Positions 422 to 64,000 of a stretch of DNA of 64,000 nt are shown piece after piece. The number at the start of each line of letters is the position of its first letter. Positions within the stretch are counted from its first letter, which is position 1. The notes under the pieces are model-generated. The model saw only the letters and a list, made by a program, of their open reading frames with translations, was not told the origin of the DNA and searched no databases. Source of the stretch: Chamaelirium japonicum (lineage: Eukaryota > Streptophyta > Magnoliopsida > Liliales > Melanthiaceae); contig OX393549.1 of NCBI GenBank assembly GCA_947650365.1, positions 96,263,514-96,327,513 on the forward strand, given 5' to 3'. A program made the position numbers and the translations under genes.

Positions 422-477
422 CTGAATAGATGAAGTCCTTCCCACTATAGCTAAACCCATGCTTCACTAGAGTGTAA
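422..477 (-). CDS. NRPC2: NRPC2 exon 13 of those visible
   Basis: This short exon reads [18 protein letters not shown], matching the NRPC2 segment after the GHADKVE block. It starts after the acceptor AACAG and its first base completes a serine codon left open by exon 12. It ends at a GTATGA donor with one base of the next glycine codon. The next expected block (GQPLQAYIFMGPIYYQKL-like) is not visible in bases 1-421, so the following exon lies beyond the left edge. The intron separating it from exon 12 is only 80 bp. Confidence 0.85.
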
Positions 478-557
478 CTGTTATGGACGACAAAAGTATA
501 AGCATAACATCATGGTTAGAGCAGGATGCTAATTGGTTAAGTAGAAGATTAGCATAC

Positions 558-683
558 CTTATGTCTTCAACCTTATCTGCATGGCCACTTCGTTCCCCAA
601 AAGCACTGCCAAAATGAAATCTTCCAGTTGAAACCCCAGCTTTGCCACCGAGAAGCTCTATCATTTTTCCGACTGTCATTCGA
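558..683 (-). CDS. NRPC2: NRPC2 exon 12 of those visible (hybrid-binding domain)
   Basis: The exon encodes [20 protein letters not shown] followed by [18 protein letters not shown]. In all multisubunit polymerases the SRMTxGxxxE block sits in the hybrid-binding domain near the active centre (Pfam RNA_pol_Rpb2_6). The first base completes the serine codon begun in exon 11, 22.3 kb upstream in the gene, which is strong evidence that the two belong to one transcript. The acceptor is CATAG and the donor is AG|GTATGC. The reading frame is intact. Confidence 0.93.
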
Positions 684-884
684 CTATGGAAAATATGACG
701 TTAGCGAAAGCACAGTCAAGTTCAACACCCATGGTAAAACTGAAAAAATTATCTACATAAATGTTTGAGCATTGTGGTTAAGAGTACTTAATGAATTTCT
801 ACAAGTAAAATGATCACTTGCATGTTCATGTATTTGTGTAATGAATTTTTGTAGATAAAGAGTTTTCATGGTTTTTGATGTAGG

Positions 885-1091
885 CAAGGGAGGACCTACA
901 CCACGTTTGGGAGGGATTTAGTGAAATTTGGAAATGAAGAAAGCCAGAGGTATTTTCATCTTATCAGTGTCTTCAGTATTCTGAACTTGACGAAAATTGG
1001 CGGGGGTGAAGGTCTTGATGTGAGGAAGGACTTGTCAAAATTTGAGGTTGATCGGATTGTTGGGAATGAAGTTATCATCCGATTTGTGTGC
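885..1091 (+). other. Unrecognised coding-like stretch
   Basis: A 69-codon open frame without an initiating ATG at its left end reads with unusually protein-like composition, for example FGRDLVKFGNEESQ, FHLISVFSILNLTKIGG and KFEVDRIVGNEVIIRFVC. It runs opposite to NRPC2. I do not recognise the family. It could be an exon fragment captured by a transposon or a chance open frame. Confidence 0.25.
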
Positions 1092-2296
1092 TGATTCTAG
1101 TAAAAAACAAGCAATTTTCAATTAAAAGAGAGCATGAGCTTCAGAATTTCAATCTACAAATAAAGTAAAACAAGGCCACATCAGCACCGATTGATCAAGG
1201 ATCAACTAACGGTTACTTGGGCATTATCCCGGAAATAAACAGGGGTGGCAGAAGGCGTAGGACAGGGGTGATGATGATGGAGGATGATAGAAACAACTAA
1301 AACAAAGATATTGTAGATATGAAGAAGGATAAAACCTGGGATGAGATCCGCCGCAGGTGCAAGAAGTCGTCATCCAATCCTCTCAAGGAGCAAGGACGGT
1401 AGACGAGATTGTCAGATCGTTCGGAGTCATGAAGCCCAAAAGCTCTTCTTGACGCGAAGCCAGGGAATGAGGATGAGTGCTCGAAGCCAACATCTTCTAG
1501 GTTTTATCTCACGAAGAGGAATCAAAATACTTAGAATCTCAATTTTATGTGTTTCTTTTTGAGATTGTCAGATAGTTCGCTGACTTGTTAGATTTCGATC
1601 CATGGTTGATATTAATGCATATGCCTCATAGAACTTCATGATATAATGATATGTTTGCTGCCTTTTTGAGTCATATTGTGCCATATTGATAATTATATGG
1701 GATAATGGGTGATTAATCCCTAACAGAGAGATTTTGGAATGCCCAGGCCATCTTAACATTTCACGAACGATAAGTCCCAGGGTTTTTTCAAAAATCCAAT
1801 ATTATCCTTGGCGTTCATTCCCATCTCTCTCAAGCACGCGAGCGGTGGCAGCGAAAGCAGCGGCGTGAGTGGCGGCAGCGAGAGTAGCGGCGTGACAGCA
1901 GCGCACCGAGCACGACCCCCACGGCATCGACCTTGACGAGTTGCAGCTGCTCGTCGTCACCGGAGCAACGAGCAACGGCAACGAGAAATCGCCACCATTC
2001 GGTCCCAGGTCAAAGGGTAAGGTTTAGAAATCCTAGGTCTAGGGTTCATCCCATGGCCCATAGATTAGGGTTAGGTTTAGGTTCGGTTCGACGGTGGCGA
2101 GCAGATCCGGCAATGGTTCGAAAGTTCACTGGTTTGATGGCATGCCAAAAAAAATTTGAAATGTTGTAAAAGGCATTTTTGTCCACAGCATTTTCAAATT
2201 CCTTTAGCTTAAACAATTTCTTTGTCAAGGACCGCTCTATTCCCCCTAATTATATCTTAGTTTGTTGACAAAAGAGAAGACCGAGAGGCTTAGGAT
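1092..2296. other. Intron sequence with no assigned element
   Basis: It contains a GC-rich, serine/arginine-biased patch around 1830-2120 with AGCGGCG-type short repeats, and otherwise plain intron-like sequence. No family was recognised. Confidence 0.4.
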
Positions 2297-2846
2297 TGTA
2301 GCGCCCCTCATCGGAGCCTACATCACTTTCTTTTTACAAACTAGGGTTTGCTATGGATGGTGGAGATCGCAATGAAAGAAGGGGAAATGCCACAGGTGCA
2401 AGTGAAAGAAAGAGAGTTTTTCACGTGAAAATGAGAGAAAGGGGGGAAGGGAAGAAGTTATGTATGGTAGTACAACATAGAGATAAAAGCTCAAAAGGCT
2501 TTAATTAAACCCCAAATAATGCCCAATCATCAAATGAGTCAACTCATGATGATCTAACCGTCAGATTCGAGAATTAATCTCGACCATAGGGCGTCGTACA
2601 GATACTTGCTCGCCTAGGTATTATTATTAAAAGCTGGAAACACACTCAAAAGAGCCCAAAATGATCCTAAAAGCTCCCGGATGTGGTCGCAGAAATCCCC
2701 ACACGACAAGGCATTGATTACAAATGATAAATAAAGTGAAAATGGGCAAAAAAACATAAATAAATGGCCTAAAATATATTATAATAATATAAAAAATGAT
2801 ATAACAATGTTTTAAAGAACCGTGATGCAGATCAGGCCCTGTCACA
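2297..2846 (-). repeat. Probable old LTR (solo or fragment), minus strand
   Basis: The block begins TGTAGCGCCC and ends CTGTCACA on the plus strand, so it has TG..CA ends. Its middle (around 2490-2800) resembles the young LTR at 42482 in layout and wording: 'atctaaccgtc' followed by 'aatctcg', then lists of 'gcccaaaa' and 'aaataaag' runs. No clear target duplication was found. It probably belongs to the same LTR superfamily, much diverged. Confidence 0.45.
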
Positions 2847-4424
2847 TTTCAAGAATTTTTCCTGATAGCTAGTATATGGATCAAGTTTTGCTTTGATGTG
2901 GGTGTAAAGTGTTTTTCAGGGTATGTTATTAGGAAGGGAGGATGGGCTAGCAATTCAAGATGTTTATCTGTATATTTAACAAAGAACCAGCTTAAGAGAG
3001 AATCTGCAAAAACAAAAAAAAAAGGATTCCTACTCCCTCGTGGGCCCTCACTCGTGCGTGAGAAGAGAGGAGCTCGCTCTCATGAAGGATTCCTTTTCTC
3101 CCCTACTATTTTTCCATGAATCCAACCCTTCGTGAGTTGTTCCTTGTGTAATTAAAGCCACACAATATCCTTAATTACCCAACAAGGCCAAAGGATTAAT
3201 TTTGTGCACCTCTCTCCCTTTTGTGATTTCAGATGAACCTATCTTGATTTCTCTTAATCTGCAAGATGTCCTATCCATATCTCAAGGGACTTTTATAGAA
3301 AACATTAATACCACGGGTACTTCTAGAAGGGGTGTAATTCTTTTTCCAACCCTATCTGAAAGGTTATGACTCTTTGTATGGAGTCGATTCTTATAACAAG
3401 CGGAGGGTTAAACGTTTATTTATTATTCTATGAATCAATTCAGAATTACCTTCAACACCAAAGTTTGTTGATTTTATATAAAATTTCAGTCTTTTGGTTG
3501 AGACTCCATTTAACATAACCCCAATTGTTAACTTTTGGTGTAATGAAAAATCCTTTACAAGGGATCATATATCCGATTGTGATAGTGTTGATGCATATCA
3601 CCACAATATCATCCATCAATTAAAATCAGAGTTGCACCCGTTCAATCGTTAGGAAGTCCTGCCGGAGGCTATGGTGCAAAGTGAGGACATGTGATGAGAT
3701 CCATCATGTCGAGACAGAGATGGCGGAGGAAACAAGGATTGCCGATCTCTAGGGCATGGTTAGAAAAGTCCACAATTGTCGATCGAAACCACTAATAAAT
3801 TTTCTTTTTTTAAGGTAACAACATCGAAAACAAAGGAAATGTCAACATCAACAAAAATATGGTAAATTTTGGTTATTTAGACAAAATCTGGTGTCGATTA
3901 CATAAAGAATACATGATTTAAGTCAAACTCGGAAACCTTTTGGTCGAAGACAAATTCCAGTTATTGACACGTCACTCACAACGATGGCACATTATGGCAA
4001 TCACTTTTCCCTTTTTAAAGAATAAAATCAAGATGTTTTCACATAAAAAAACTTTTCCCTTTTTGGCAATCACTATTTTTTTTAAAATAGACCAATACTT
4101 CACAGAAATCGGCCGAGAAATTTTAAAATTTGATAGAAATCAACCGAGAATTTTTCACATTTCCACCAAACTATTTTCTAAAAAAAACTAAATATTTTCA
4201 CAAAATTTGACCAAAATCTGAAATATAACCTCTTTTTTTCTGCCCGAAATCGACAGCGAAAACCTTACCATCGAGCAAGTTCAATAACTAAAGCATGTTT
4301 GATTGCGATTGTAGAATAGTGACCAAACGGATCACGGAGTCCAAAGCTTAGAACTTAAGTGCCATATAGCAAATCACATTAATTGACGCGAAGATGCTCC
4401 TATATTCTGAGACATAGAAAGAAG
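2847..4424. other. Intron sequence, mostly unassigned
   Basis: AT-rich. The stretch around 3800-4260 carries many 'aaatcgacc/gaaattt' words, like the termini of the hAT remnants further right, so it may be a decayed hAT-type element. No boundaries could be set. Confidence 0.35.
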
Positions 4425-5411
4425 CCATGAAATCTAAATTGGAGCTCATGCACTCAAATCAAGATTGGGAGCTTGTAAAACTACGAAAGTGTATTAAACC
4501 CATCGGTTGCAAGTATGTCTATAAGCAAAAAAGAGGAGTGGACAAGAAGGTTGAAATCTTCAAGGCTAAACTTATTGTGAAATGGTAGGAGGGAATCGAT
4601 TATGAGATCTTTTCGCCATGATGCAACCAATTTTGATTACGAAATAAGGAAAACGTACGTCGAGAAGATATTTCCGAATGAACATCTTGCAGAAGACATC
4701 TACTTCATGCAACCAAACATAATTATTTCAAAGGCCCACAACCACCTAGTGTACAAGTTAGATAGGTTCATTTATATGTATAAGGGAGCGTCTTGGATGA
4801 CATCCTACTCATTGCGAATGATATCGAGAGATTCCATACCATTAAAATCTTGTTGTCCAATAACTTTGATATAAGGACTTGCAAGAATCCAGATAAATCT
4901 TTCGGATCAAATTTTAGCGAAATTGAGAAAATAGAATGTTGGTACTATCTCAGACTGAAGAGATATAGTTTTGGTACGGTTTGGAATATCTCTCTAGAGA
5001 TCAATTTCCTAAAACACTTGAGGAAAAAAATATGAGGATGATACCACATACTTAAGAAGTTGTCAACCTCATGTACAATATGCATTGCACTAGATCAGAT
5101 ATTTTTTTCACGGTCAACGTAGTCAACAGGTACTAATGCAATCCTGATCAAGAACATTGTACGTCAGCCGAGCGCATTCATAAGCATTTCAGAAGGACCA
5201 AGGACTATGTTCCAGTATAAGTTATAGAGGATCTAGTGTCCATTCCGTACACATTAACAATTCTAGTTGGATCTGGGAGCTAGGATACCAAAAGATAAAC
5301 TTTTATTTTTGAATGAATATACTTTTGGATTTGTGTTTCCTTAAAGAGGTAAAGTCATCAACTAAAGAAGTGTTTGATAGACTTGCATTCACGAATCCAC
5401 TATGGAGGTTG
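4425..5411 (+). mobile_element. Fossil Ty1/copia element, pol fragment (left part)
   Basis: Translations resemble copia reverse transcriptase and RNase H: a GCKYVYKQKRG-like block, an EGIDYE-like block, DDILLIANDI and a TSAERIHKHFRRTKDY-like block. The copy is clearly broken, with many breaks, and old. Copia wording resumes at 12617, directly after the inserted LTR element, so the two parts were one element before that insertion. Confidence 0.8.
5407..5411 (+). repeat. Target-site duplication GGTTG, left copy
   Basis: GGTTG precedes the TGATG start of the left LTR. The same five bases follow the right LTR at 12617-12621. Confidence 0.9.
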
Positions 5412-5884
5412 TGATGTGATCCGACTTGGGCCCAAGCCCGTTGGCCCACTCGAAGGCCCATCCTAGCCTGCCATGGATGGATAAGGCAGGATATCTCTTA
5501 TGATATCTTTTAGAATCTTTTTTTTATTTGAGATCTTTATTTTAGGCAAGTTAGTTATTGGCTTTTAAATTTGTTGTCATTTTTATCTTTTCTTTTAGCC
5601 TATTTAAAGGCCCCCATTGTAACCATTGAAGGAGATTATTATGAATGAAAATTGATGGCGGATGCCTTCGTTGGCTCATGGATTTGAGTCCCCACCTTGT
5701 ACCCTGATGGATTTCAGGCCCCCTCTCGTCTAAGCTTCTAGTCTTTTCTTCTCTGTCACAGTTCTTACCCCCTCCGCCACTTCCTCTCGGTGATTCCGTA
5801 TCACTAGTTATCTTTTACAAAGAAAATACCAAAAATATTACATCGCCTTCATCAACCGCCCTTCGACGACGCGCGCCTGCATCA
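5412..5884 (+). repeat. E1 left LTR (473 bp)
   Basis: Ends are TGATG...CATCA. It contains a TATA-like 'tatttaaa' at about 5600. It pairs with 12144-12616 at nearly every base. Confidence 0.93.
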
Positions 5885-5887
5885 AGT

Positions 5888-5899
5888 TGGTATCAGAGC
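5888..5899 (+). other. E1 primer-binding site
   Basis: TGGTATCAGAGC is the usual plant LTR-element match to the 3' end of initiator methionine tRNA. It lies 3 bp (AGT) after the left LTR. Confidence 0.9.
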
Positions 5900-6439
5900 T
5901 TCGGCTTCGTGGCGTTCCCGCACCACGAACGATCTTCGCTTCGATCGCCGTCGTCCATCGTCATCGTCATCGTCGCCGTTCCATCGTCACCATCCTCGCC
6001 GAGTCGTCATCTTCTTCTGGTACGTCGCCCTACAATCCCAACAAAAAAAAAAGGAGAAGAAAGATCAGATCTTGAGAAAAAAAAAAAGGAAGAGAAAGAG
6101 CATACCTCCATCCGCTACCCACCTCCTTTGCTCGCTCGTGCAACCACCGCAAGCCACCCTCGGACCCTCTCCTTTGCCGCTGCACCCTTCCTCTCGCTCC
6201 ACCCGCTGAACCACCACCCTTTCCCGTGCTCCAGCGCACCCCGCAGCCAAAAGAAAAAAGAAAAAAAAAAAACAAAAACAAAAACAGATCTGCCATCAGA
6301 TCTGTGGTACAGCAGAAAAAGGAAAAGAAAGAATAGAAGGAAAGAAAGAAGAAAGGGAAAGAAAAAGAAAAAGGAAAGAAGAGGAGAAAAGGCAAGATTT
6401 CTTACCTTAGTTGCGGGTTGCTAGCCGCTGCCCCGCCCC

Positions 6440-6444
6440 CTTTT
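6440..6444 (+). repeat. Target-site duplication CTTTT, left copy
   Basis: CTTTT before the E2 left LTR is repeated at 10897-10901 after the right LTR. This shows that E2 inserted into the leader region of E1. Confidence 0.88.
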
Positions 6445-7682
6445 TGATGCAGACGAGCCACTACGTGCAGTTTTCTACAGCTGATGGCGTATTTCCATCC
6501 GCGCCGGAGATCCAGAAACCCGATCGTCGATCCGTCTGCATCAGTGGAAAGCTTAATCGAAGCCCCACAGTTTTGGTTTTTACTTTATTTCGATCCGACC
6601 AGCGGATCTTTAGTTATTTCAGTTTTTATTTCTGGTTTGGGTAGATGCGAGCCATGTTCGCATCCGGTTCGAGCCACAGATGCCGAACTGACTCATTTCC
6701 GTGTTAGGTTTTTAGCCATAGGATCTTAGGTCAATTAAATCTCAATGGATGAGATTCGCTGGAAGCCAAAAACCCCCCAACCGAACCTCTCACCCGGCCG
6801 GCTTCCCATTCCCGCGGACACACCCGCGCGGGCACGCCTTGGGAAGCGTGCCCGCGTCCCTCTCTCTCTCCTCCCGCGCGGATTCTCTCCCTTTCTCTTT
6901 CCTTTTGAGTATTTTGGTGTTTCATCCCCTATTTATTCTAAAAACCCTAATTGCAATGGGAGTTGAAAATTGAATTGAAACCCTAACAACGGAGAAGCGG
7001 ATCGCTTGCTCGGTGTATCTTTTCCGACGAATTCCTCCTTGCTTCTCAACCTTCTCTTCCTTCGCAAGCTTCTACCCCGTCACCTCGCTATTCATCCTCG
7101 GCTTCACGGAAGATCGACGTGGAGTGTCTTCTTCTTCAAGATCATCGTCTCGGCTTCTTCACCCCGTCTTCTGGACCACACCTCCCCCTTCCGCGCCATT
7201 CCTCTGCAACATCGGAGTATCGGAAAGCTGCCGGCATTGACCAAAGCACGGTGAGATCGATCCTCGGTAGTTTTCATGTGATAACATCCTTTTCTCGCAA
7301 CCGGCCTTATTGCTGATTTCATTATAGGAACCCTAAATTCCTGTTTTCCTGAGAGTCTCATCCATTAGGATTTATTCGATTAGATCTTTGCATGTTATTG
7401 AGACATTGACTTATTAATTTGAGATTGTCCTTGTTCTTATTGCTGGAATTCAGTCTTATAATCTGAAATTAGTGTTCATCTTGTCCATTTTATTGTTTCT
7501 TTGAATTAAATCTGATTGGTGATGAATGAATGCTGAAAACGTGATTCTAAGCATTGCTGAAATTTACTTATACATGCTGAAATCTGATTTTTCTGCTTAA
7601 AATTCAGCACTTGGCTTTATTTAGCATTTGCATCGCATCAAGTTAGTAACAGATCGCATCAAGTTGGTATCAGAGCTCATCA
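6445..7682 (+). repeat. E2 left LTR (1,238 bp)
   Basis: It pairs with 9659-10896. Its last about 45 bp contain two tandem copies of a primer-binding-site unit, the second being an exact TGGTATCAGAGC at 7665-7676. Confidence 0.92.
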
Positions 7683-7685
7683 AGT

Positions 7686-7697
7686 TGGTATCAGAGC
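7686..7697 (+). other. E2 primer-binding site
   Basis: TGGTATCAGAGC sits 3 bp after the left LTR. It is the third tandem unit of a roughly 21-bp repeat whose first two units are inside the LTR. Confidence 0.88.
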
Positions 7698-7834
7698 GCA
7701 CTAGTCGTCGCGTTCTTACGCAACGGCCGGTCCTCTCGCATCATTCGCATCATTGCCTGTTTGCTGAAATTTTTTTTTTTTTTGCCTTCTTTCATTTTAG
7801 TTAGCGCCTTGCATTCATTAGTAACACGCATCGC

Positions 7835-9646
7835 GTGAACGCATACATTTTAGGACCATCCCTTTTTCTCCCGAGTGAATCGATAGCATCTACTAGGCAA
7901 TCTAGCATGGCAGGATCTTTGCCACCCCGCACTTGGCACGATGCCTTCATAAGGCAACAGGAACACATGGGTAGGCTTCAGACCCAAATAGAAAAATTGA
8001 CCTTGGCCGTCACCAAATCCCAGAATCCACCTCGACCCCATCGGGAACACAGGACTAGAGCGTCGCCAGGGCATAGTGAGTTAGACCTAGAGTCAGGAGG
8101 AGCCAGCGTCAGTTCCTCTAATGGATCTGATAGGCGGAATAGCAGAACTCATAGGAGATCGAAGTCCCATTGGGGCTGGGATCAGAGCATCAACATAGAA
8201 ATTCCTGAGTTCGGGGGTCGGATGGATCCCGAAGAGTTTCTGGAGTGGGCCGAGAGAATCGACCAGTATTTAGAACGAAAAGAAATCCCCCGCGACAAAC
8301 AAGTTAAGTTTGTCAGCCTTAAACTGAAAGGTCATGCACTGATCTGGTGGAAACAGTTGCAGACCGCTAGGGGTAGAAAAGGAAAAGAGAAAATTTCCAC
8401 TTGGACACACATGAGGGGAAAGATGCAACAGAAGTTCCTCCCTTCTGATTCCAAACAAAGTGTGTTCCAGAATTTGTCCTCGAAAGTATCCGAGTGCACT
8501 AGTCGTCGTGTTAGGGAAAAGAGCACAAATCCGCTGGCGTACTACATGCAGACCAGCCAAAACAGAAGTCGCCAAACCCAGCGACAAGAGCACAAATCGG
8601 TAGATCAGCCAGATCACAAGTCAGCCGATTGTCCTCAACGACAAGTCAATCCCCAGACAAATCTGGCGGACAATGACGAGGATAGTCAGGGGTCTGAGGG
8701 CGAACACCTCAATGAGTTAGTCTTGGAGGGAGATGATGTGACTGCACGACTGCTGATTATTCACCAGTCCCCATCACCCCCTGCACCTACAGCTCTTCTG
8801 AGTCAGAACCAACCCATACCACCATTCGCAGATAATCTCGTAGGGTGTTCATCTGGTTCACTAGCAATTGAGAAGGGATTAGACAACATTTTGCATTCCA
8901 TTGCGTGCACATCGCACTTAGAGTCTGTAGGCATTAATCGCACTCGCATTCATCATTTGCTTGGCATCTCTACAATCATAGACCAATCACATGTGCATCC
9001 ATATCATCCAAGTGTTGAATTTAACCTTAAAGACGATTTTGGCATGTCTGATCATTTTTCGATGCAAGATAGTTATGAATCATGCTTTCAACTTTCAGCC
9101 AACCCATCATCTTTAATTTTTCGAAATCATAACAGATGGCATGATGAATTCTTTGATTTCATATTTTATTCACTGCATCCCGACAATGATTGTATCACAT
9201 ATCTTCGTCGTCTTCTAGAATCCACTTGTTTTGCACCGTGCGCAGGCCACATTGAGCAACACATAATGCACCCGCAACCCTTGGCCTTTCAAATACACCA
9301 ATGCCTATCGCGCAAGCCGATGACCCGCAGCACATTATGCTCCCGCGGCCTCTCTTTTCACATGTCATTTGAATTTCATGTCAACCCACATTCCTATTAT
9401 CACATGAAATTATCTGAGTATTTTGATGGTCTTATTGTGCCGCGGAGGATGTTGGTGTTGACTTTCAGGTCTTCGCTTGGCGTCAAGGGGCAGGGGTTAC
9501 GAGATGGAGTTGCTGCATACTTGAGGTGGATTACTTGGCCACCGGACCCGGGAGAGCAGTCAGAGCGGATTCAGCGGCTGCCATTACTACCAGGAGCGCC
9601 CCCGCCGGATCCAGGACCTTGCTCGACAGGAGTCGAGTTCTTTTGA
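7835..9646 (+). CDS. Gag-like open frame of E2 (603 codons)
   Basis: A long open frame fills most of the E2 internal region. Residues about 125-205 match the Ty3/gypsy Retrotrans_gag capsid domain: IPEFGGRMDPEEFLEWAERI, then VKFVSLKLKGHALIWWKQL, then KMQQKFLPSD. The following part is rich in Q/H/S. The C-terminal half is not recognised but contains an IHHLLGI motif also seen (as HHLLG.HHQ) in the frames of E1 and of the element at 42482. The true start may be the methionine of MAGSLPPRTW, about 25 codons downstream. No protease or polymerase domain is present. Confidence 0.85.
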   Translation: MNAYILGPSLFLPSESIASTRQSSMAGSLPPRTWHDAFIRQQEHMGRLQTQIEKLTLAVTKSQNPPRPHREHRTRASPGHSELDLESGGASVSSSNGSDRRNSRTHRRSKSHWGWDQSINIEIPEFGGRMDPEEFLEWAERIDQYLERKEIPRDKQVKFVSLKLKGHALIWWKQLQTARGRKGKEKISTWTHMRGKMQQKFLPSDSKQSVFQNLSSKVSECTSRRVREKSTNPLAYYMQTSQNRSRQTQRQEHKSVDQPDHKSADCPQRQVNPQTNLADNDEDSQGSEGEHLNELVLEGDDVTARLLIIHQSPSPPAPTALLSQNQPIPPFADNLVGCSSGSLAIEKGLDNILHSIACTSHLESVGINRTRIHHLLGISTIIDQSHVHPYHPSVEFNLKDDFGMSDHFSMQDSYESCFQLSANPSSLIFRNHNRWHDEFFDFIFYSLHPDNDCITYLRRLLESTCFAPCAGHIEQHIMHPQPLAFQIHQCLSRKPMTRSTLCSRGLSFHMSFEFHVNPHSYYHMKLSEYFDGLIVPRRMLVLTFRSSLGVKGQGLRDGVAAYLRWITWPPDPGEQSERIQRLPLLPGAPPPDPGPCSTGVEFF

Positions 9647-9658
9647 GTCCGGGGGACT

Positions 9659-10896
9659 TGATGCAGACGAGCCACTACGTGCAGTTTTCTACAGCTGATG
9701 GCGTATTTCCATCCGCGCCGGAGATCCAGAAACCCGATCGTCGATCCGTCTGCATCAGTGGAAAGCTTAATCGAAGCCCCACAGTTTTGGTTTTTACTTT
9801 ATTTCGATCCGACCAGCGGATCTTTAGTTATTTCAGTTTTTATTTCTGGTTTGGGTAGATGCGAGCCATGTTCGCATCCGGTTCGAGCCACAGATGCCGA
9901 ACTGACTCATTTCCGTGTTAGGTTTTTAGCCATAGGATCTTAGGTCAATTAAATCTCAATGGATGAGATTCGCTGGAAGCCAAAAACCCCCCAACCGAAC
10001 CTCTCACCCGGCCGGCTTCCCATTCCCGCGGACACACCCGCGCGGGCACGCCTTGGGAAGCGTGCCCGCGTCCCTCTCTCTCTCCTCCCGCGCGGATTCT
10101 CTCCCTTTCTCTTTCCTTTTGAGTATTTTGGTGTTTCATCCCCTATTTATTCTAAAAACCCTAATTGCAATGGGAGTTGAAAATTGAATTGAAACCCTAA
10201 CAACGGAGAAGCGGATCGCTTGCTCGGTGTATCTTTTCCGACGAATTCCTCCTTGCTTCTCAACCTTCTCTTCCTTCGCAAGCTTCTACCCCGTCACCTC
10301 GCTATTCATCCTCGGCTTCACGGAAGATCGACGTGGAGTGTCTTCTTCTTCAAGATCATCGTCTCGGCTTCTTCACCCCGTCTTCTGGACCACACCTCCC
10401 CCTTCCGCGCCATTCCTCTGCAACATCGGAGTATCGGAAAGCTGCCGGCATTGACCAAAGCACGGTGAGATCGATCCTCGGTAGTTTTCATGTGATAACA
10501 TCCTTTTCTCGCAACCGGCCTTATTGCTGATTTCATTATAGGAACCCTAAATTCCTGTTTTCCTGAGAGTCTCATCCATTAGGATTTATTCGATTAGATC
10601 TTTGCATGTTATTGAGACATTGACTTATTAATTTGAGATTGTCCTTGTTCTTATTGCTGGAATTCAGTCTTATAATCTGAAATTAGTGTTCATCTTGTCC
10701 ATTTTATTGTTTCTTTGAATTAAATCTGATTGGTGATGAATGAATGCTGAAAACGTGATTCTAAGCATTGCTGAAATTTACTTATACATGCTGAAATCTG
10801 ATTTTTCTGCTTAAAATTCAGCACTTGGCTTTATTTAGCATTTGCATCGCATCAAGTTAGTAACAGATCGCATCAAGTTGGTATCAGAGCTCATCA
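9659..10896 (+). repeat. E2 right LTR (1,238 bp)
   Basis: Matches the left LTR. It is followed directly by the CTTTT target duplication and then by E1 internal sequence. Confidence 0.92.
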
Positions 10897-11338
10897 CTTT
10901 TGCTCCCAGCTGCAGCCGCTCCCCCCTTTTGCTCCTTCCCTACCTGCCAACAAAACAAAGAACACAAAAAAAAAAAAAACCCTAATCCGATTCCCCCCCT
11001 TTTGCCCTTTCTATTTTTCCAATTCACCCCCCACCACAACCCTTAGATCCCCATCCAACAGCCCTCAAATCCCCAACCTTTCTAGTTGCTCTTTCCCACT
11101 TAAGTGCTGAACCCGATTGAATTCGGATCCAACCCGTTTACAAAAAACAGACCCGATAAGACCCTACAACTTCAAAACGCCATATCTCTCTCATTTTTCA
11201 TCCGATTTGGACGTTCTTGGTACCGAATCGAAGCCCTTTTCGAGCTCTACGCATCCATACCATCAGCAGGAATTTTCAGTGAACCAGTAATTACAGATTT
11301 CCAGATTTACCCCTGGACCACACTTCTACTATTGTGGC

Positions 11339-13260: not shown

Positions 13261-13278
13261 GGGAGAAGAATGGTATCA

Positions 13279-13400
13279 TTTTTTTTTTTGAGGGAATTTC
13301 TCTCCAAGAAGGAGAGGATGGGGTTAAGCCATACCCCAAGCTAATTTATTAGAAAAATAGAATGAAAAAGTTAAAGAGGAGTTTAAAACCAATACAAATA
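13279..13400 (-). mobile_element. Truncated 3' end of an L1 LINE, minus strand
   Basis: Plus-strand poly-T followed by 'gagggaatttctctccaagaaggagaggatggggttaagcc' is the reverse complement of the 3' tail of the LINE at 32263-34022 ('ggcttaaccccatcctctcc...' then poly-A). It is a dead, strongly 5'-truncated copy. Confidence 0.8.
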
Positions 13401-45942: not shown

Positions 45943-46027
45943 TAAAATATAAGTTCCTTGCTATTTCTCGAACAAGTTTTTTTTCTTAACAAACAAAGAT
46001 GAATAAAGTAGATTATTAATTTGCAAC

Positions 46028-53900: not shown

Positions 53901-55107
53901 TCACCAGCCCTACTAGGTCTACCACACGATGGAGCAGGAGCCAGGTCTTTCGGTACTGTTTATGAAGCTGCATATGTACCATACTCGAACGGATATGATC
54001 CACCACCAGGTCCACCATCATCATATTATCGAGATTCTTATCAACCGATGCTTTCAGAGCCTAGACATTGTTCCTTGTTTTCAGAATAAGAAACATATGG
54101 AGATTCTTCACCCTCCTACAGCTGCGAAGCCTACGGTTATGGTGTCCAGCAGAACCAGAACATTGGCCACTCAATCTTCGATTATTCTGGGCCTACCAAC
54201 AGGTCTTACTGCCAGCACTACTCAGCACCGACTCCAAATAAAGAAGAAGTTGGTCGCAATAATAATCTGTGGAACTTCTAAAATCTGAATCTTCTGATAT
54301 GAGCAGCTGAGCCAGGTAAGGTAACTAAAAGTGAGTTAATAATTTTAACATATTGATAATCTGTATTCTGTGGAACAATGGAAGTCTGGAACCTATTGTA
54401 TTGTAAATTTGTAATAATAAAAAATTTCCAAAACTTTAAAAGGTTATTTTATAGAACTTTTAAAAAACCCTTTTTAGCTTCGCCAAGGCCGGTCCCAAGC
54501 CCAGATAAACGAGGGGAAAATGATACATAAAATTAGGAATTAGTAACTTCTTAGGTGTGTCCGTGTGAATCGTGTGACTTATGAATTGACTTATGAGTCA
54601 TGTGGTTCAATTAGGTCTCTATTGTCTAATCATTCACCTCGTGGAGTGGTGATTTGACAATAGTTGACAGGTTCATCAAGATTCTTAGTCATACACCTCG
54701 GGGAGTGGTGCTTGTGAATCTTGATGAATGATGAATCCAAGACTCTGAATTCATAAGACTCATAAGTCATCAGACACATAGTCATAAGTCATAACTCATA
54801 AGTCCTAAGCCTTAACTATTAAGAGTCCTAACTCCTAACTCCTAATTACTAAGCCTAATTGCCTAAAGGCCCTAAACTGGCCTAAAACTAAAAGTAGTCT
54901 AATATTTATTTTTCTAATTTTTTTTATTTTTTAAGGATTTTTTGGAATTTTTAGGAATTTTTTTTATTTTTTTACAATTTTAAAAAAAAAGGCTGGTACC
55001 GATTCAAACAGAACCGGCTGTACCGGCAGATACCAGTACGAACTGGCCGGTTCGAACCTGTTCGGCGCCGACCGATAACGGTACCGGTACCCGAGTTTTA
55101 AACCTTG
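50908..55107 (+). mobile_element. hAT transposon with BED, DUF659 and hATC domains (4.2 kb), in copia
   Basis: The perfect 8-bp duplication CCTCTACC flanks it (50900-50907 and 55108-55115). The ends TAGGGTTTCAAATCTCG and, reversed, CAAGGTTTAAAACTCGG are inverted repeats, with 'ggtaccggtacc' words inside both. Transposase parts in order: BED finger (51167-51330: KSKEIDAGWLHCKAIKGN, VICNYCNRTINGGI); DUF659 (52040-52610: a KSINASNKA-like block, then NHNWIVDLMRKHTGK, ITRFATDFIALES); hATC dimerisation (53300-53440: APDLQKIAVRVLSQTCSALG, ERNWNTF); and a Tyr/Ser/Pro-rich tail to about 54280. Exon-intron structure and several stops and shifts interrupt the frame, so it is probably inactive, though its ends look mobilisable. 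Confidence 0.9.
51167..51463 (+). CDS. hAT transposase N-terminal exon with BED zinc finger (part of 50908-55107)
   Basis: An open frame of 98 codons from MAPKSKEIDAGWLHC. The zinc ligands C..C and the GGITRL motif are present, but the usual KxHLA histidine region is altered (TGNKGQVTGCEHVP). The following exon cannot be joined without breaks. Confidence 0.75.
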   Translation: MAPKSKEIDAGWLHCKAIKGNKRKVICNYCNRTINGGITRLKTGNKGQVTGCEHVPAEVRSQFQQFFREASKDKNIIPDLFASKRPPLTKSQPVRGYR

Positions 55108-55133
55108 CCTCTACCTTCACCTCCACCACCACC

Positions 55134-55732
<599 letters not shown>

Positions 55733-57562
55733 CCACCACCCTCCCCACCTTCCCCTTCCACGTCTCCCCCGCCACCACCACTACTACCTGTCACGCGTGT
55801 CTATGTTCGTCACTCTGCAGCTCTCCTCCCGAGTCGGTTCACACTAGTACTCCGTCGCCTGCGGCAGCTACTCCCTCCTCTTCGGTCGCGGATCCTGACC
55901 CTGTACGGCGCTACCCTGCACGCGAACATCACCCTCCTGACAGATATGCCTACTCTCCCGACAGGTTTGGCTACTCTGCCTTTACCTCTGACTCTTCTGA
56001 CTCCTGTGGCTACTCTGTTATTGCCTCCTACTCTTCGTCTTACCAGGCTTTCCTTACTGCCCTTCACACCCACCGGGGGCCCCAATCGAACCGTGAGGCA
56101 GCTTTACCCCCAGAGTTGCGGCAAGCCATGTCAATTGAGCTAGAGGCTTTTCAGCAAACCTAGACATGGGATTTGGTTCTTTGTCTCTGCGGTGTGGTGC
56201 TTGTCAGCTGCAACTGGATCTTCCAGGTCAAGACTCGACATTATGGTTCCATTGAACGACACAAGGCCCACCTCGTTGCTCGTGACTTCTCCCAGGAGTA
56301 TGGGATTGACTACGAGGAAACGTTTGCTCCAATTGCTCGAATGACTACTGTGCGCACCTTCTTAGCTATGGCAGGTGCTCGAGGGTGGCCTCTATATCAG
56401 ATGGACGTCAACAATGCGTTCCTTCATGGTTACCTCTCCAAGGAGGTATACATGGCTCCTCCACCGAGCGTTTCTATTCCTCCAGGGCATTTTTGCCGTC
56501 TGCGTTGGGCTATATATGGGCTCAAACAGGCACCTCGGGCCTGGTTTGAGCAATTCCGCAGTGCAGTGCTGACAGCTGGGTTTGTAGAGACTCTGACTAT
56601 GCTTTGTTCACCCGCTCCTCCAGTCAGGGTATTGCTTTGCTGCTCTGTATATGGATGATATGATCATCACCGGGGATGACAGTTCCACCATAGCATCCCT
56701 TCAGGGTCACCTCCAGAGTCAGTTCGATATGAAGGATCTGGGCCCTCCCGATACTTTCTTGGCCTTGAGATTGCAAGGTCAGCTCATGGATTATTGATCT
56801 CCCAGCAGAAGTACATCTCCGACATTTTTGCCGAGACTGCTCTTACTGACTCTTGTACTGCTGACACGCCCATGGAGCTCAACTTGAAGCTCCTTTCTAC
56901 AGATGGTGAGCCTCTTCAGGATATAGCTCGTTACCAGCGACTGGTTGGGATGCTCGTTTATCTCACCATGACTAGGCCTGACATTGTCAATGTCGTTGGT
57001 ATTGTCAGCCAGTTAGTTCAGGCTCCTTGCTCGGTTCACTTTGCAACGGTTCTTCGGATTATCCGGTATCTCCGTGGCACCGTCACTCGTTCGCTGCTTT
57101 TTTTCTCCACCTCTCCGTTGGTTCTACGTGCTTACTCCAATGCAAATTTGGCTGGAGATGTTGCTACCCACCGCTCTACCACTGAATACTATGTGTTCCT
57201 TGGCGATTCCCTCATTTCTTGGCACAGCAAGAAACATGAGCCTGTTGCACGCTCCAACACCGAAGCCAAATACCGGGCTATGGCTTCACCACCGCAGAGA
57301 TTGTATGGCTACCCTTCTCTTCTGTGACAACTGGAATGCTATCAGATTGCTAGCAACCCGGTTTTTCATGAACGGACCAAACACATCGAGGTTGACTGTC
57401 ATTATGTTCGACAGGAGTTTCTTGCACACATCATCTCCTTGTCGTTCATTCCCTCGACAGAGCAGACTACTGATTTTCTCACAAAGCCTCTTACGATTGC
57501 TCGATTTCGTCATTTTATAAGCAAACTCTCGGTACATGATCCACCGTGAGTTTAAGAGGGAG

Positions 57563-57710
57563 TGTTAATGTATATGCCAGGTCGGGTTTCATGTACAATT
57601 GTACAGTCAGGGTCGAGTTTCATGTGTATTGATGTACATATATATTGGGATTGAGTCCCACGATAGAGAGCATTCTATTCGCTCCAAACCATAGCCGTCA
57701 TCTCCTAACA
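57563..57710 (+). repeat. Copia right LTR (about 148 bp)
   Basis: Starts TGTTAATG after the purine tract and ends CTAACA at 57710. Confidence 0.85.
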
Positions 57711-59485
57711 GTTGTATCGACATATCCATATCGTACCAGTATCCCTTTTTCAAATTTTTCATTTTTTTTGTTTGAATTTTTATTGTCTTGTTTTTGAGTC
57801 AAACTTTGGCTGTATTTTGGTCATTAGATAAAAATGAGTTAAAAAGGGATAAAGAAGAAAGGGTTCGTAACTACCTTTAAAATAAGCTTTTAATTGCTGA
57901 ATTGAAAGCAAAGGGATCGATTTGGAAGGATTTAAGAAACCTTGTAACACAAGGGACATAGGAATTAAGTTAACAGGCCTCTCTAACGAAAATCAAGAAG
58001 AACCTCACTTAGTGGATTTCTTCTCCAAATCGGTCCATTCATGAAGATCCTCCTCTCATATTGGCCTCGGCTATTTCCTTCCTTTTTTACTTTATCTAGC
58101 TTTCTTAAGGCCGATTGTGAAAAGCTTACAAGGAAAGGGTCACAGGCCTGATCAGCAGCAGGATACTTTAAATATTATATCAATTTTTTTATTTATTTAT
58201 GTCCTTTTTGGAGCGTTTATCATGTTTTGGGTCATGTTATGCTCTTATGATTTTAGTTTATTATCGTAATTGATGCCTTGTCATGCTAGGTTGTGCATGA
58301 CCTCATTCGGGGACTTTTCGGATCATTCCAGGCTCTTTCTAATGAGTTTCCAGCTAATTATTAATAAAATAAAGTAAATAGGTACTCCAGGGTGCCCAAC
58401 GGTCGAGATTAGAACAAGATCCGACGATTAGATCACCAAGACATAAAATAATTGATGACGTAGCCGCTAATGGACTTCAATTAAAAACCCTTTGGGCTTT
58501 TAAGATAAGCCCAACACGAGCTCTCTCTCCTACCTGCCTCTCTTCCGCTTTTCCAACCTGCACGGCCCGTACGGATTACTTCTCCCCTCCCTAGTCTGAC
58601 TCTTTTCCCTTCTCTCTTTCTATTTATTATCTCCCTCCTCTTTTAATTCTTATCCATTGGTTTCTATGAGATTTGATCTTGGCCCTCCGTCTGAAAATCC
58701 TAAATCCAAAAAAAAAGATGAAACCCTATTCTATATTCAAATTTTAATGAACGAATAATTACTCCACGTGAGATATTAGGATTAACTCATGTCCCCACCC
58801 TTTTTTCGACTTTGCCTCAAGAAGCATCATCTTCCACCTCTGCGAGTGGTACTCGGCTAGCGAACCGAAGAATCCGACGATTCCATTGACAACCTTTCTC
58901 CATGAAGGATCACTTGCAAGATTCCTTACAAATCCATAGAGGTTTCATTTATCTTCTCTATTTTCTTTCCCCATCCACTTCATATTCCATCGTTTAGTTG
59001 CTTCCACATCCTTTAAGCTGCCATTAGTCGCCCCTATTCATCCCTTTTGAAGATCATTAAAAGACTATCATCATTATGATTAATCGGATGGGTATGGCCC
59101 TTGCAGAACTGTTTTAGCTTCTTTAATATAAAAACTGCTTGCTGATTTTAGAAAATCTGCACATTATTTTAGCCAAAACTTTAGGCTTGGTGACTCGATC
59201 ATTCTCAAATTTCGATCAGTCCTTCGTCCTGTCAAGACCCACATCCTCACCAGTTTTTGTCAAGATCGATAAAATGGATCATTCTAAAAAGATGAGAATA
59301 CCCCTGATTCCCTGAATGTCCTAATTTCCAGATTTTCCCAAATCCCTCCAAAATCAAGTGTAGATTAACCCTCGCCTACCACAGAAAGGCATTTAAACAG
59401 AGAAATACCATTTCACATGGAACTGGAAGCGAGATTAAAGGTCGTTGCAGTTGCAGTATTCTATAGATTCTTCCGATTTACCGTC

Positions 59486-59487
59486 TC

Positions 59488-59535
<48 letters not shown>

Positions 59536-59565
59536 TGTGTGTATAGATAGATAGATAGATAGATC
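59486..59565. repeat. Compound microsatellite (GT)n(GATA)n
   Basis: GT run with two AT interruptions, then five GATA units. Confidence 0.9.
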
Positions 59566-59613
59566 TCCCCCCCACCCCACTTATGCCTGGCTTATTAAGG
59601 AAATAATTCGTGC

Positions 59614-59744
59614 ATACACAAGTCTTGTCCTGCCTCTATATACTTCTTTTCTTGTTCTTCCCTTGTTGAAAATATAGTACATACACAAGTCTTGCCCTGC
59701 CTCTATATACTTCTTTTCTCGCTCTTTCCTTGTTGAAATAATAA
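59614..59744. repeat. Tandem duplication, about 66-bp unit, two copies
   Basis: 'catacacaagtcttgtcctgcctctatatacttcttttcttg...ccttgttgaaa' is repeated with a few differences. Confidence 0.85.
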
Positions 59745-61682
59745 GTGGAGGAAACCCAAAATTATAGGAATTGTATTGTGAAAGCATTCAGATACATTGG
59801 CCCCTTTCTATCCTGGTCCATAAATAGAGGGAATGCCATCAATTATACTCAATTGAAGTTTTGATTAATAAAATTCACACTTCTCCTATCGCTTGTGAAT
59901 GGCTATGTTAAATGCCTACTTTTGTACCTCCCACGACATAATTTTCTGTATGACTATACCAAGCTTAGCATTCTTTGGTATCGGGGCAAGCCGTACTTTT
60001 CGTTCTATCAAGAAGGGTCTGACGTCATAGCGGGAAAAGCCCAATGCAACGAGTTGAAGCAGAATCGCGAGATCGAGCTTCTCTCATAGGAGCTTAAATT
60101 TGTTAAACTTCAGACTCAACTAGACTATCTCTTAAGAGAGATCCAGAAGATGACGAGTGAAAAGGACGAAGGAAGAGGCAATCATATCCATTGCCCATGT
60201 CAAACTAAGTTCTCGGACTTTTGGATGGGAATTCTGAGCAAGACCGAGGAGTATCTATCTCAACAGAAGACACCCTACCGGAGCTTCCACCTCTTAATGG
60301 GAGTATCGACACCCCTTCAATGCAGATTTCGAAAAGATACTCCTGGAGGAATCTGAGCACGTGGTGCAAGCAAACAAATTGTTCGTTGATTGTCAACTAA
60401 GGGAATTTCAAATCACGTACGGGAATTCGCCTCCCTCTTCGAAGACTTTCCCAGAGAGATGCAGTCGGAGGAGTCCAAACTAGTGGAGGAAGATGTTGGT
60501 CGTCCGCAAGAAAGCCCAAGGAGGAGCTCGTGATGAAAGTCACTAATTTGAATCCGCCTTTGGACGATGTCCTGTCAAATGACGACTTTCCAGTGTCATC
60601 ACTATCATTTGTGGAGGAGTCAAAGTTGCCAAACTTTAGCTACCAATGACCACATCCTTATGAAACCAAAGATGTGAAGTCCAATTATGGGATCCATTTG
60701 ACCACGGAATAGAAAAAACTAAACGAGACCTTCCATAGCAATTGATCAACCAATATAAATCCAGAAGATCAAAGTTGTGGAAATCATCTGCTCTGTAGGA
60801 GATTTTTAGAGGAAGGACAACAGTCTCTTTGCAACATCACAAAGCCCAAAGATAGGAGTTAATAACTTAATATCAAAAAATTTCTCGGGTAGTGTAGATA
60901 GTTTTCCATCTAAGGAATTCTATAAAGAGGGACCCTCAGATTAGTCAAAATCAGTAGCAATAGGGCACTAAGGCGCTAAATTTTGAGCTAATTGATCCAA
61001 TTAGGCATCGTTATGTGTTTTAGTGAGTTGATTTTATAGGCGGATTCAGTCGGTTTGATGGTTTGGTGGGTTGAGTCCTCTTGCTAGTTGCTATTTTTAT
61101 CTATTTTTCTAGATTTTTTAGGATTATTAGTCATATAACCTATGGGTCAAATTGCGTGTATTTTGGTCTTCGAAGGAGTCCTAGCTAGGAAAGGACAAAG
61201 ATGGAAGGGTTCATAGCTAATTTTAAAACTAAAATAAGCTTTAATTGCTAAATAAGCGGTAAAAAGGATAAACTCGGAGGGATTTAAGAAATAAGGTAAC
61301 AAATAAACACATGAATTAAGTTGTGTTGTCCCCTCTGACAACTAAAAGGAACAAATCTCAAGGAATTTCTTCTGTCAAAGACACTCCCACAAGCCACTCT
61401 TCTCCCGGTGGCCATGGTTATTTCCTACTTACATTACTTACTGTATTTAGCCTTTTAAAGGCCAATTTTGTAGGGAATAGGGATAAATAAAGAAAGACAT
61501 AATCAAAGAAATCCCCTCCCACGTGTGATTGCAGGGAAGAGTAGATGTTGCTCCTAGTAGAGTATTCAATTGTTTCTATTTTATGTGAATCTCTCTCTCT
61601 TATGTCATGTTTATGAAGGAAATAATTCCCTAAATACGTGAATCCTCCTATATCTCTATTTACTTCACTTTTCTTACTGAAA

Positions 61683-62340
61683 TAATATGCGGAGGAAGCC
61701 CTTAACTACAGAACTTGTATTGTGTAGCCTGTGTGCACCACTTCTGCTGCAGCTGCTGGCCTGGCCGCATTCGGCCGGGTGTGACCTTGGCAAGGTCTTG
61801 CACCTCCGGCCCATGACGGCACCGTTGGTGGTGGGTTAGGAGTATATGGTCGGGCAAAGTCGAGCGTACCTTATCTGCCGCGAGGTTGCTTATTGTCGTG
61901 ATGCGACGTTCGGCCACTTCGGCGCCACGATATTGCGAGGGTTGTCGGGTCGTTCTGCTCTCTCTCTCTTGTTGTATCGGCAGGGTTCGGAGTCGTGCTG
62001 ATAACGTGTTGTAAGACGAGAGAGGAGATACCGAAAAACCGTGTAACCCACCCCGAGAGCCATATATTAAATAAGGTGAATTAACTTAGGGCCCAAGCAA
62101 CCATGGGAAACCCTAATTCCATGAGGGAGATCGAACAGTGGACAGCCACCCGATCCAATGATCTCATAACAGTTATAATATATTTTATATTTTATAAGTA
62201 ATAAGTATAACTTATAAGTTATAACACACAGCTTATAAACAAAAATATAGAGAGTGGGACTATGAGACAACGAGTAAAATGACATGACAATGAGTACAAT
62301 GGCCAAACACCGACTCATTTACTATGGAGCTTAATCCATG
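61683..62340 (-). mobile_element. Copia-type LTR and leader fragment, minus strand
   Basis: On the minus strand an LTR-like end with a TATA-like 'atttaatatatgg' runs to '...cttacaaca', followed by 'cgttatcagcacg', a wording seen at the primer site of many plant copia elements, and then a leader and a short gag-like piece ending near 61683. A truncated, broken fragment. Confidence 0.45.
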
Positions 62341-62385
62341 TCTAGGTTAGTCATATAGTTGTGCTGCTCAAAACACGAGAAAGAA

Positions 62386-62545
62386 TACAAGCTGAATCGG
62401 TTTCGGCCGAACGGTTCGAAACCAACCGAAACTGGACGAATCTAACTGATCCAACCGAAACCCACCCATTTCGGGACCGGTTCCAGCCGAAAAAGATCTG
62501 TAACCGTCGAAACTCAAAGCCCGTGTCTTCCTACAGCCAGTAGAA
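62386..62545. other. CGGTTTCGGCCG-rich patch, likely decayed hAT terminus
   Basis: The words 'cggtttcggccgaacggttcgaaacc' and 'gggaccggttccagccgaaa' resemble the interiors of the hAT elements at 24338 and 48936. No ends or duplication found. Confidence 0.35.
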
Positions 62546-62659
62546 CCGAATCTACATACCATAAATTGAAGTCCAACATAACGGATTCCATATCAAGTTG
62601 TCCAATCCAACAGCAATGCCAATAGAATCCATAAAGGGAAACTCCATATGGAATCTCAT

Positions 62660-63494
62660 ACCGATATATTATATTAGTTTTCCATAGTCAGCCCCAACCC
62701 CATGTGATATGAAGGAGGAGAGAAAGCTCACGTGCAGAGGTTTCCCTTCTATTCGCGGAACCCGACGCCCCCCTCCACGCGATCTTTTCTCTCTCTTCTC
62801 CATTGCGTGAGGAAGTTCTCTTGTGCATCGCACTTGTGTTTTCATAGGAGTCATATGCGGGTTTTATAAATAAAGGATGAAACCCTTGATGAGAAAAAAG
62901 ATAGAAAAATCTGAAAGCTTTTTGCTTTGATAGAGAGATCGTAAAGGTGCGTCCTTCGTTTGCCATCGTCTTCCTCATGGAGTTCTTCCGACTTCTCTCG
63001 ATCTTCCTCGTCGCTCTCTACCTCCCGCCATTCATCTTCATCGACATAGCTATCCGAATAGAGATCTTGAATCTCCCGGGTATTATCTTTCTTCGTTTTG
63101 TTTTTAAATCATCATATGTTCATTGGTTTCATAGGCTTTGATCGCACCCTGCCATAAATCCATCTATCCAATAGTCTCCCTTATTCCTGACTTCGCTTGA
63201 CTTGTTTGGAACATCAGATCCTCATCCGAACCTTTTATTAGTCCTTTGCATGAGTACTAAATTGCTGAAATTATTATTTGCAAACAATGTTTGAGACCTA
63301 ATTTAATTTCATTGCCAGGCTTTCTTTATTTGTCAAGTTTTATACATGCTAAGATGATTAGTGAGGCTACTTCTTGATAAAAATCTGATCGTGGGTGTTT
63401 AGTGCTTGCTGAAATTTACTTTTAGTTGTTAATTTAAGCCATAACTTGTTCTACAAGTAGTTAGCTTCCGTGTATCGCAATCGGATTTGCATCA
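62660..63494 (+). repeat. Probable solo LTR of the E1/E2/E3 superfamily, plus strand
   Basis: It has a TATA-like 'tttataaataaagg' near 62860, a CT-rich leader (62950-63060) and the run 'ttgctgaaatttactttt...atttgcatca', all in the order seen in the 3' part of the E2 LTR. It ends GCATCA at 63494. The start is uncertain and no duplication was confirmed. Confidence 0.5.
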
Positions 63495-63927
63495 GGGTGC
63501 TACCAAAAAAAAGTCCTCGAGAAATATGACTCAGATGCAAATATCATATACATATTTTAAAACTCAAAAATAGAGGGGGAAAAACATGAAGAGTCACAAA
63601 CGAGGCAAATGTGTGAAAATATAAACAAACTTTCCATGTTACACAGAATGAAAAAGAGGCAAATAAATGTGTGAAGATATAAACAAGTTTTGCATGTTAC
63701 ACATAACAAAATAGTTTAAAGTCGACGCTAATTACATGACCTAACCAATACCTGCTCTTAAATGTTAGAAATCTCACCTAGTAGTCATTCCTAGTAACAC
63801 AATAAGAGACCATAAAATACCATAATCATAAAAAAGCGTGTAAAATAAGTATGCGCCAACTCTAATAAGATTTATATTCTAGAGAATTGATTTGTATCAA
63901 TTCAGGGGCATGAATATACGAACTTAC
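63495..63927. other. Intron sequence next to exon 1
   Basis: Includes a small duplication ('aaatgtgtgaaaatataaacaaac...catgttacac' at about 63608 and 63666). Otherwise plain AT-rich intron ending in the GTAAGT donor. Confidence 0.55.
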
Positions 63928-64000
63928 CTGCCTTTCATTTACAAATATGCTTACAAACTCCCCGATTTTACCACATCTACGCAACTTTCTCATAGTTGTT
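63928..64000 (-). CDS. NRPC2: NRPC2 exon 1 of those visible (continues beyond the right edge)
   Basis: It encodes LRRCGKIGEFVSIFVNERQ, which in NRPC2 directly precedes the HCVYxASDGGR block, found here 21.7 kb away in exon 2. The exon ends CAG|GTAAGT, an ideal donor, in phase 0. Its acceptor lies outside the window, as does the N-terminal half of the protein. Confidence 0.95.

What the first reader, a model, noticed from the sequence alone, without database searches (positions are those of the whole stretch)
422..64000. A whole 64-kb window lies inside one housekeeping gene (NRPC2)
Thirteen exons of an essential Pol III subunit are strung over more than 63.5 kb, and only about 2% of the span is coding. 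Every exon is open and the phases agree across introns of 22.3, 16.9 and 21.7 kb, so this looks like a working gene that tolerates extreme intron expansion. Nothing else in the window is a host gene. Annotation pipelines would likely split it into several partial genes.
Basis: partly seen in the sequence, partly recalled or inferred. Interest (0 to 1): 0.8.

Follow-up and report, generated by a model that had tools for sequence, protein, structure and literature searches.

The report
Giant, recently copied Pol III gene
The window sits inside a roughly 200-kb plant gene for a core part of RNA polymerase III whose introns are swollen by jumping genes; the gene exists in several recent copies side by side, and the copy read here has lost its zinc-ribbon piece near the end, so a sister copy probably does the work.

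Summary
All 13 exons of the Pol III second subunit (RPC2/NRPC2) are at the stated places: 1,337 coding bases, 445 codons, no stop, clean splice sites, introns of 21.7, 16.9 and 22.3 kb. The window is only the middle of the gene: exons continue on both sides, about 199 kb on this copy.

The interpretation needs changing. The assembly holds three near-full copies (A, B = window, C) and one gutted copy (D) within 1.24 Mb of one chromosome. A and B differ by 1.3% through the giant introns. Copy B breaks off at C1:96244701, just before the 44-aa zinc-ribbon exon that A, C and D keep, and carries one doubled exon. So the window copy is probably not the working one. A and C have nearly every exon I looked for, and I found no compact copy; giant-intron NRPC2 therefore probably works, most likely from A or C.

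TE-swollen introns and segmental duplication are both known in plants: a new member of a known kind. Expression was not testable, and A/B could be uncollapsed haplotypes.

The parts
63928..64000 (-). RPC2 exon w1 (its 5' part lies beyond the window)
   Evidence: donor GTAAGT
42229..63927 (-). giant intron, 21,699 bp
42124..42228 (-). exon w2
41959..42039 (-). exon w3
41695..41865 (-). exon w4
41560..41604 (-). exon w5, followed by a GC-AG intron also present in copies A and C
40879..40956 (-). exon w6
40666..40805 (-). exon w7
40500..40578 (-). exon w8
23605..40499 (-). giant intron, 16,895 bp
23480..23604 (-). exon w9
23242..23368 (-). exon w10
23025..23155 (-). exon w11 ([12 protein letters not shown] stretch)
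684..23024 (-). giant intron, 22,341 bp
558..683 (-). exon w12
422..477 (-). exon w13 (gene goes on below the window)
5412..12615 (.). 7.2-kb LTR-element insertion present in B, absent from A; LTRs 99.4% identical over 482 aligned bases
   Evidence: gag
42483..45078 (.). 2.6-kb insertion with 702-bp terminal direct repeats 100% identical; present in B, absent from A
29004..29978 (.). 975-bp insertion in B, empty site in A
55134..55731 (.). 598-bp insertion in B, empty site in A
61994..62291 (.). 298-bp insertion in B, empty site in A
32244..33935 (+). decayed LINE-type reverse transcriptase pieces in the 16.9-kb intron
   Evidence: RVT_1 partial and below cut-off at 32244-33251, zf-RVT over cut-off at 33363-33935
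39122..39604 (+). DUF659 fragment in the 16.9-kb intron (link of DUF659 to hAT transposases is recalled)
56164..57327 (+). copia-type RVT_2 pieces in the 21.7-kb intron
   Evidence: first over cut-off, second below

Best explanation
The window is the middle of copy B of a Pol III second-subunit gene (NRPC2) that transposable elements have stretched to about 190-230 kb. A segmental duplication with inversion gave C and the A/B ancestor, then A and B split more recently, and TE insertions kept landing in the introns after that. Exons are transcribed with their TE-filled introns and spliced at ordinary sites; that step is inferred, not shown. Copy B suffered a break just upstream of the zinc-ribbon exon and an exon doubling, so it is most likely a recently disabled or truncated copy, while A and/or C provide the essential protein. 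Shown: exons, copies, break, insertions. Inferred: order of events, which copy is expressed, and that B is non-functional.
For: 13 open, phased exons here and 14 more pieces of copy B outside the window on the same strand in gene order: 13 with AG acceptors (one of them one base further out) and GT donors, one ending in a stop codon. Copies A and C have the window exons too (13 of 13 in C, 12 of 13 in A, where w1 is withheld), with equal lengths except one unaligned edge base in C, 0 stops and 0 exon indels. Between B and C, non-synonymous change (21.5 of 1,044 sites; 21 used in the test) is rarer than change in adjacent intron sequence (81 of 2,166; Fisher p = 0.005), and indel events are 0 in exons vs 10 in introns. 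A and B: 868 mismatches in 66,629 aligned bases of a chain filtered to pieces of 93% identity and 80 bp or more, collinear through all three giant introns; five insertions of 298-7,204 bp in B, the five whose junctions I printed, have empty sites in A. Zinc-ribbon exon: found in A, C, a second C-side end, and D; not in B by genome search with all 16 candidates scored, nor in B's own 23.8 kb below exon 1044-1093 (score 34 vs 33 for the reversed query). Homology of B to A, C and the second C end stops at one and the same base, C1:96244701, about 310 bp short of the exon on A's coordinates. Exon 185-207 is found once in A and C and twice in B.
Against: No expression data. Constraint per copy is weak: dN/dS 0.56 (A-B), 0.47 (B-C), 0.42 (A-C), on 9, 34 and 33 differences. 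A-B shows none: exons 9 of 1,264 vs introns 16 of 2,062, share test p = 0.31; the same share test for B-C is only p = 0.02-0.05. So A may be relaxed too. Exons not seen in A or C: about aa 1-38 and 292-308 (in no copy), and exon 1016-1044, which one search does not list for A or C; one search scored 100 of 190 candidates and does not list B for it either, though B has it, so this says little. C's exon 185-207 is a weak match (70%, E 7). A splice from the 1044-1093 exon to the terminal-like exon at C1:96226040-96226102 would be in frame by exon lengths and give a ribbon-less protein, so B is not strictly dead. The break, which sits in a small inverted repeat, could be an assembly join.
Confidence: 0.66

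Rival explanations
1. One reading: the window copy itself is the working, essential NRPC2, and A and C are spare or dead.
For: B exons are open and spliceable; a terminal-like exon with a stop lies in frame downstream.
Against: B lacks the zinc-ribbon exon that A, C and D keep, has a doubled exon, and has a private change at an otherwise conserved place, Q158L, where A, C, human and yeast have Q. A also has private changes, so this last point alone does not separate them.
Confidence: 0.12
2. A and B are two haplotypes of one locus left uncollapsed in the assembly; the real genome has A/B as alleles plus C and D, and the loss of the zinc exon is an allele or a misjoin.
For: 1.3% divergence is in the range of heterozygosity (recalled); same orientation, about 420 kb apart; the assembly holds at least one redundant unplaced contig (MCM gene on C7 repeated with identical scores on C425).
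Against: Of the 8 chromosomal MCM loci I group, none has a same-scoring copy on its own chromosome; two lie 0.5 Mb apart on C3 but with different scores (sequences not compared). C and D show that duplication happened at this locus.
Confidence: 0.22
3. All copies on C1 are decaying duplicates and the working NRPC2 lies in unassembled or withheld sequence.
For: dN/dS of 0.42-0.56 seems high for a polymerase core subunit (yardstick recalled); withheld stretches exist.
Against: No stop and no frameshift in the 12-13 window exons of three copies; A and C have nearly all exons looked for.
Confidence: 0.06

Closest known systems
RPC2 / NRPC2 (POLR3B, yeast RET1; these names recalled), second subunit of RNA polymerase III
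   Same: Best match over 445 aa by more than 200 bits over Pol II; Rpb2 domains 4-6; further exons match much of the rest of the chain
   Different: Gene about 190-230 kb; window copy lacks the C-terminal zinc ribbon
TE-swollen ultra-long plant genes: Chinese pine (PMC10082083) and Sapria himalayana (PMC10246380); passages seen
   Same: Small exons in very long TE-rich introns; pine with ultra-long genes of 200-500 kb, Sapria with 23 genes that have introns over 100 kb
   Different: Here in a 1.5-Gb genome, in a polymerase subunit, in several segmental copies. The longest gap between found exons is about 37 kb (copy C)
Duplicated Pol III subunit C4 gene in rice, DGS1/DGS2 (PMC5555463; title and start of abstract seen in the listing)
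   Same: Pol III subunit gene duplicated, with loss-of-function alleles
   Different: Other subunit, unlinked loci on two chromosomes; giant introns not mentioned in what I saw
Intron gigantism in Drosophila (PMC6508613, PMC6508621; starts of abstracts in the listing)
   Same: Small exons among giant introns
   Different: Megabase introns in Y-linked male fertility genes, not a housekeeping gene

Membership tests
RNA polymerase III second subunit (RPC2) | Closer to RPC2 than to RPB2, RPA2 or NRPD/E2 | tested here: met
   533 bits human RPC2, 520 yeast RPC2; 310 Pol II; 199 Pol I; 185 Pol IV/V
RNA polymerase III second subunit (RPC2) | Rpb2 core domains 4, 5, 6 | tested here: met
   three Pfam hits over cut-off
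RNA polymerase III second subunit (RPC2) | C-terminal zinc ribbon, in the window's own copy | tested here: not met
   met in A, C and D
RNA polymerase III second subunit (RPC2) | Assembled into and needed for Pol III | not testable with these tools
   needs expression and protein data
TE-expanded giant-intron plant gene | Introns above 10 kb between canonical splice sites | tested here: met
   further gaps of this size between exons in copy A
TE-expanded giant-intron plant gene | Growth by transposable-element insertion | tested here: met
   five insertions with empty sites in A, two of them with long terminal direct repeats; TE domains
TE-expanded giant-intron plant gene | Correctly spliced transcripts | not testable with these tools
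   no RNA data
Segmental duplication | Long collinear copies of 90% identity or more | tested here: met
   A-B 98.7% over 66.6 kb aligned; C-B 90-96% in collinear blocks, inverted
Assembly artefact (uncollapsed haplotypes) | Half read depth over A and B | not testable with these tools
   no reads; indirect control

The most novel reading that the evidence does not exclude
Copy B is not dead but makes an RPC2 variant without its zinc ribbon, by an in-frame splice from the 1044-1093 exon to the distal terminal-like exon at C1:96226040-96226102, giving a dominant-negative or specialised Pol III subunit from a 217-kb gene; the break thus created a new gene form rather than a pseudogene.
Probability: 0.06. 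Interest if true: 0.7.

Novelty: new member of a known kind. Interest (0 to 1): 0.42.

Why it matters
A core polymerase subunit encoded, as far as found, only by genes of about 190-230 kb in a 1.5-Gb plant genome is a strong natural test of how transcription and splicing cope with TE-filled introns. Copies of different age that share introns let one order the TE insertions and ask when long introns start to hurt. It also warns that an intact 64-kb stretch of exons can belong to a copy broken elsewhere.

Tried and rejected
A single-gene reading was dropped once the same exon appeared at three places on C1. Pfam Rpb2_1 and Rpb2_2 models listed no C1 exons; protein queries did find them. A chance likeness of B's intron after the 1044-1093 exon to the zinc-ribbon motif was considered and dropped: one cysteine only, and an ordinary splice donor. 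A hidden zinc exon in B was sought by loose motif and by alignment with a reversed control and not found. I first took the aa 378-410 exon as missing from B; alignment found it (score 44 vs 28 for the reversed control). C seemed to lack middle exons, which scored 100 of 190 candidates; one search found them. dN/dS could not tell which copy works: too few differences. The species was not identified; 'plant' rests on TE types and a plastid-type rpoB judged by eye. Paper searches for NRPC2 and for long-intron genes showed no report of this gene's size in their listings; they cover only the held open-access library, and listings were capped.
Full report
WHAT IS THERE. Splicing them gives one open frame of 445 codons; 11 introns are GT-AG and one GC-AG. 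The protein is Pol III RPC2 by a wide margin over the other second subunits, with Rpb2 domains 4-6. Coding share is 1,337 of 64,000 bases. In the 10 of 40 long ORFs that I scanned, 6 had transposable-element-type hits and 4 none.

THE GENE IS LARGER THAN THE WINDOW. The window is C1:96263514-96327513 of a 1.52-Gb assembly. With translated exons and recalled RPC2 probes I followed the gene out on both sides. One search lists 14 further exon-like pieces of copy B on the same strand in gene order: 13 with splice borders and one with a stop codon. Upstream of these, exons for about residues 39-207 lie between C1:96412347 and C1:96443425. From the first exon found to the break described below the copy spans 198.7 kb; copies A and C span 188.8 and 230.7 kb. 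The first exon (about 38 residues) was found in no copy. Exon 517-556 was found in C and not in A or B, where its expected place is withheld (N stretches; the placing is inferred from the alignments).

THE LOCUS IS A CLUSTER OF COPIES. Searches with the window protein, outer exons, N-terminus, zinc-ribbon exon and middle exons put the NRPC2 exons on C1: A at 95.82-96.01 Mb (minus), B the window copy (minus), D at 96.54-96.62 Mb (minus), C at 96.81-97.04 Mb (plus), plus a second copy of C's 3' end 24.75 kb further on. A small broken zinc-exon fragment lies on C6. Candidates were all scored, but 95 of 111 and 100 of 190. D keeps N-terminal exons, exon w12 (73% identity) and C-terminal exons including the zinc ribbon; none of its other middle exons was listed; its exon 39-85 is present three times, once inverted. 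A and B are collinear with 868 mismatches in 66,629 aligned bases, giant introns included, in a chain filtered to pieces of 93% identity and 80 bp or more. C aligns to B in collinear blocks of 90-96%, with different intron lengths and other TEs between.

INTRONS STILL GROW. One search shows gaps on both sides of the A-B alignment. I printed the junctions of five insertions in B (298, 598, 975, 2,596 and 7,204 bp); each has an empty site in A and a short repeated target (targets judged by eye). Two have terminal direct repeats, 99.4% and 100% identical. The 2.6-kb one lies about 250 bp upstream of exon w2. On A's side the largest extra stretch is 5.5 kb.

CONSTRAINT. Exons w1-w13 have no stop and no indel in B and C, nor have w2-w13 in A, where w1 is withheld. 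Between B and C the exons differ at 34 of 1,336 sites, adjacent intron sequence at 81 of 2,166; non-synonymous change alone is below the intron rate (p = 0.005), the share of non-synonymous changes is less clear (p = 0.02-0.05), and indel events are 0 against 10. dN/dS values are 0.56, 0.47 and 0.42: constrained, but loosely. Between A and B exons (9 of 1,264) and introns (16 of 2,062) differ about equally and the share test gives p = 0.31: no sign of constraint since that split, with little power.

THE WINDOW COPY IS BROKEN AT ITS 3' END. The 44-residue zinc-ribbon exon is in A (95823533), C (97042342), C's second end (97067092) and D (96541906), and not in B. B's 23.8 kb below the preceding exon, which has no N, contains no candidate better than a reversed control. 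A DNA search with B's sequence shows that A, C and the second C end all match down to the same base, C1:96244701, and no further (40 of 2,004 candidates scored, most of them a dispersed repeat; D was not listed). On A the exon lies about 310 bp past that point. In A and C the last exon sits about 190 bp after the zinc exon; B's terminal-like exon at C1:96226040-96226102 is at another place, and D has a similar distal one at 96529346. B also has exon 185-207 twice (96412347 and 96422760), A once (95990325) and C once, weakly (96836926). I conclude that B is probably not the working copy. That a ribbon-less RPC2 cannot serve Pol III is inference.

HOW IT MOST LIKELY WORKS. A giant primary transcript from A and/or C is spliced at ordinary sites to a coding sequence of about 3.4 kb (length from the family, recalled). 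Arabidopsis lines with NRPC2 reduced by 75% and 90% arrest as globular embryos (PMC8583208, passages seen), so a plant without any working copy is not expected; since no compact copy was found, a giant one should work. This step is inference.

HOW UNUSUAL IS IT HERE. Three other second-subunit genes of this genome span at least 43.3 kb (C2), 11.4 kb (C8; up to about 23 kb if weaker outer hits count) and 12.3 kb (C10) over the parts found (not assigned to Pol I, II or IV/V). Of 8 chromosomal MCM loci, as I group the hits, the MCM domain spans 3 kb or less in 5 and about 8, 18 and 28 kb in 3. Long introns thus hit some housekeeping genes and not others, and NRPC2 is the largest of these few.

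KNOWN OR NEW. Ultra-long genes are described in pine and in the angiosperm Sapria, and Areca palm has a milder case. The parts here are known kinds; the combination is the interest. I score 0.42.

Noticed in passing
C1:97032192-97042721 and 97056942-97067471: The 3' end of copy C (three exons seen) is present twice, 24.75 kb apart, with identical scores.
   Followed up: partly
C1:96619091-96620627: Copy D has three copies of the exon for residues 39-85 within 1.5 kb, the middle one inverted.
   Followed up: no
C6:39476003-39476133 and 39478823-39478912: A broken zinc-ribbon fragment of NRPC2 in two frames and a weak N-terminal match (E 0.88), possibly an old relic outside the cluster.
   Followed up: no
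many small contigs (C335, C470, C1321 and others): rpoB-like sequence lies on a large number of small contigs; the one read in L003 (C2037) looks plastid-type by eye, so the assembly seems to keep many plastid fragments.
   Followed up: no
C425:2069-3042 vs C7:17506181-17507154: An MCM gene on C7 is repeated with identical scores on a small contig: some redundancy is left in the assembly.
   Followed up: no
window 41559: A GC-AG intron after exon w5 is present in copies A, B and C.
   Followed up: yes
C1:96244650-96244735: The break in copy B sits between the arms of a 19-bp inverted repeat (seen by eye in the output).
   Followed up: no
C2:30388813-30432156: Another second-subunit gene spans at least 43 kb, so long introns are not confined to NRPC2.
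   Followed up: partly
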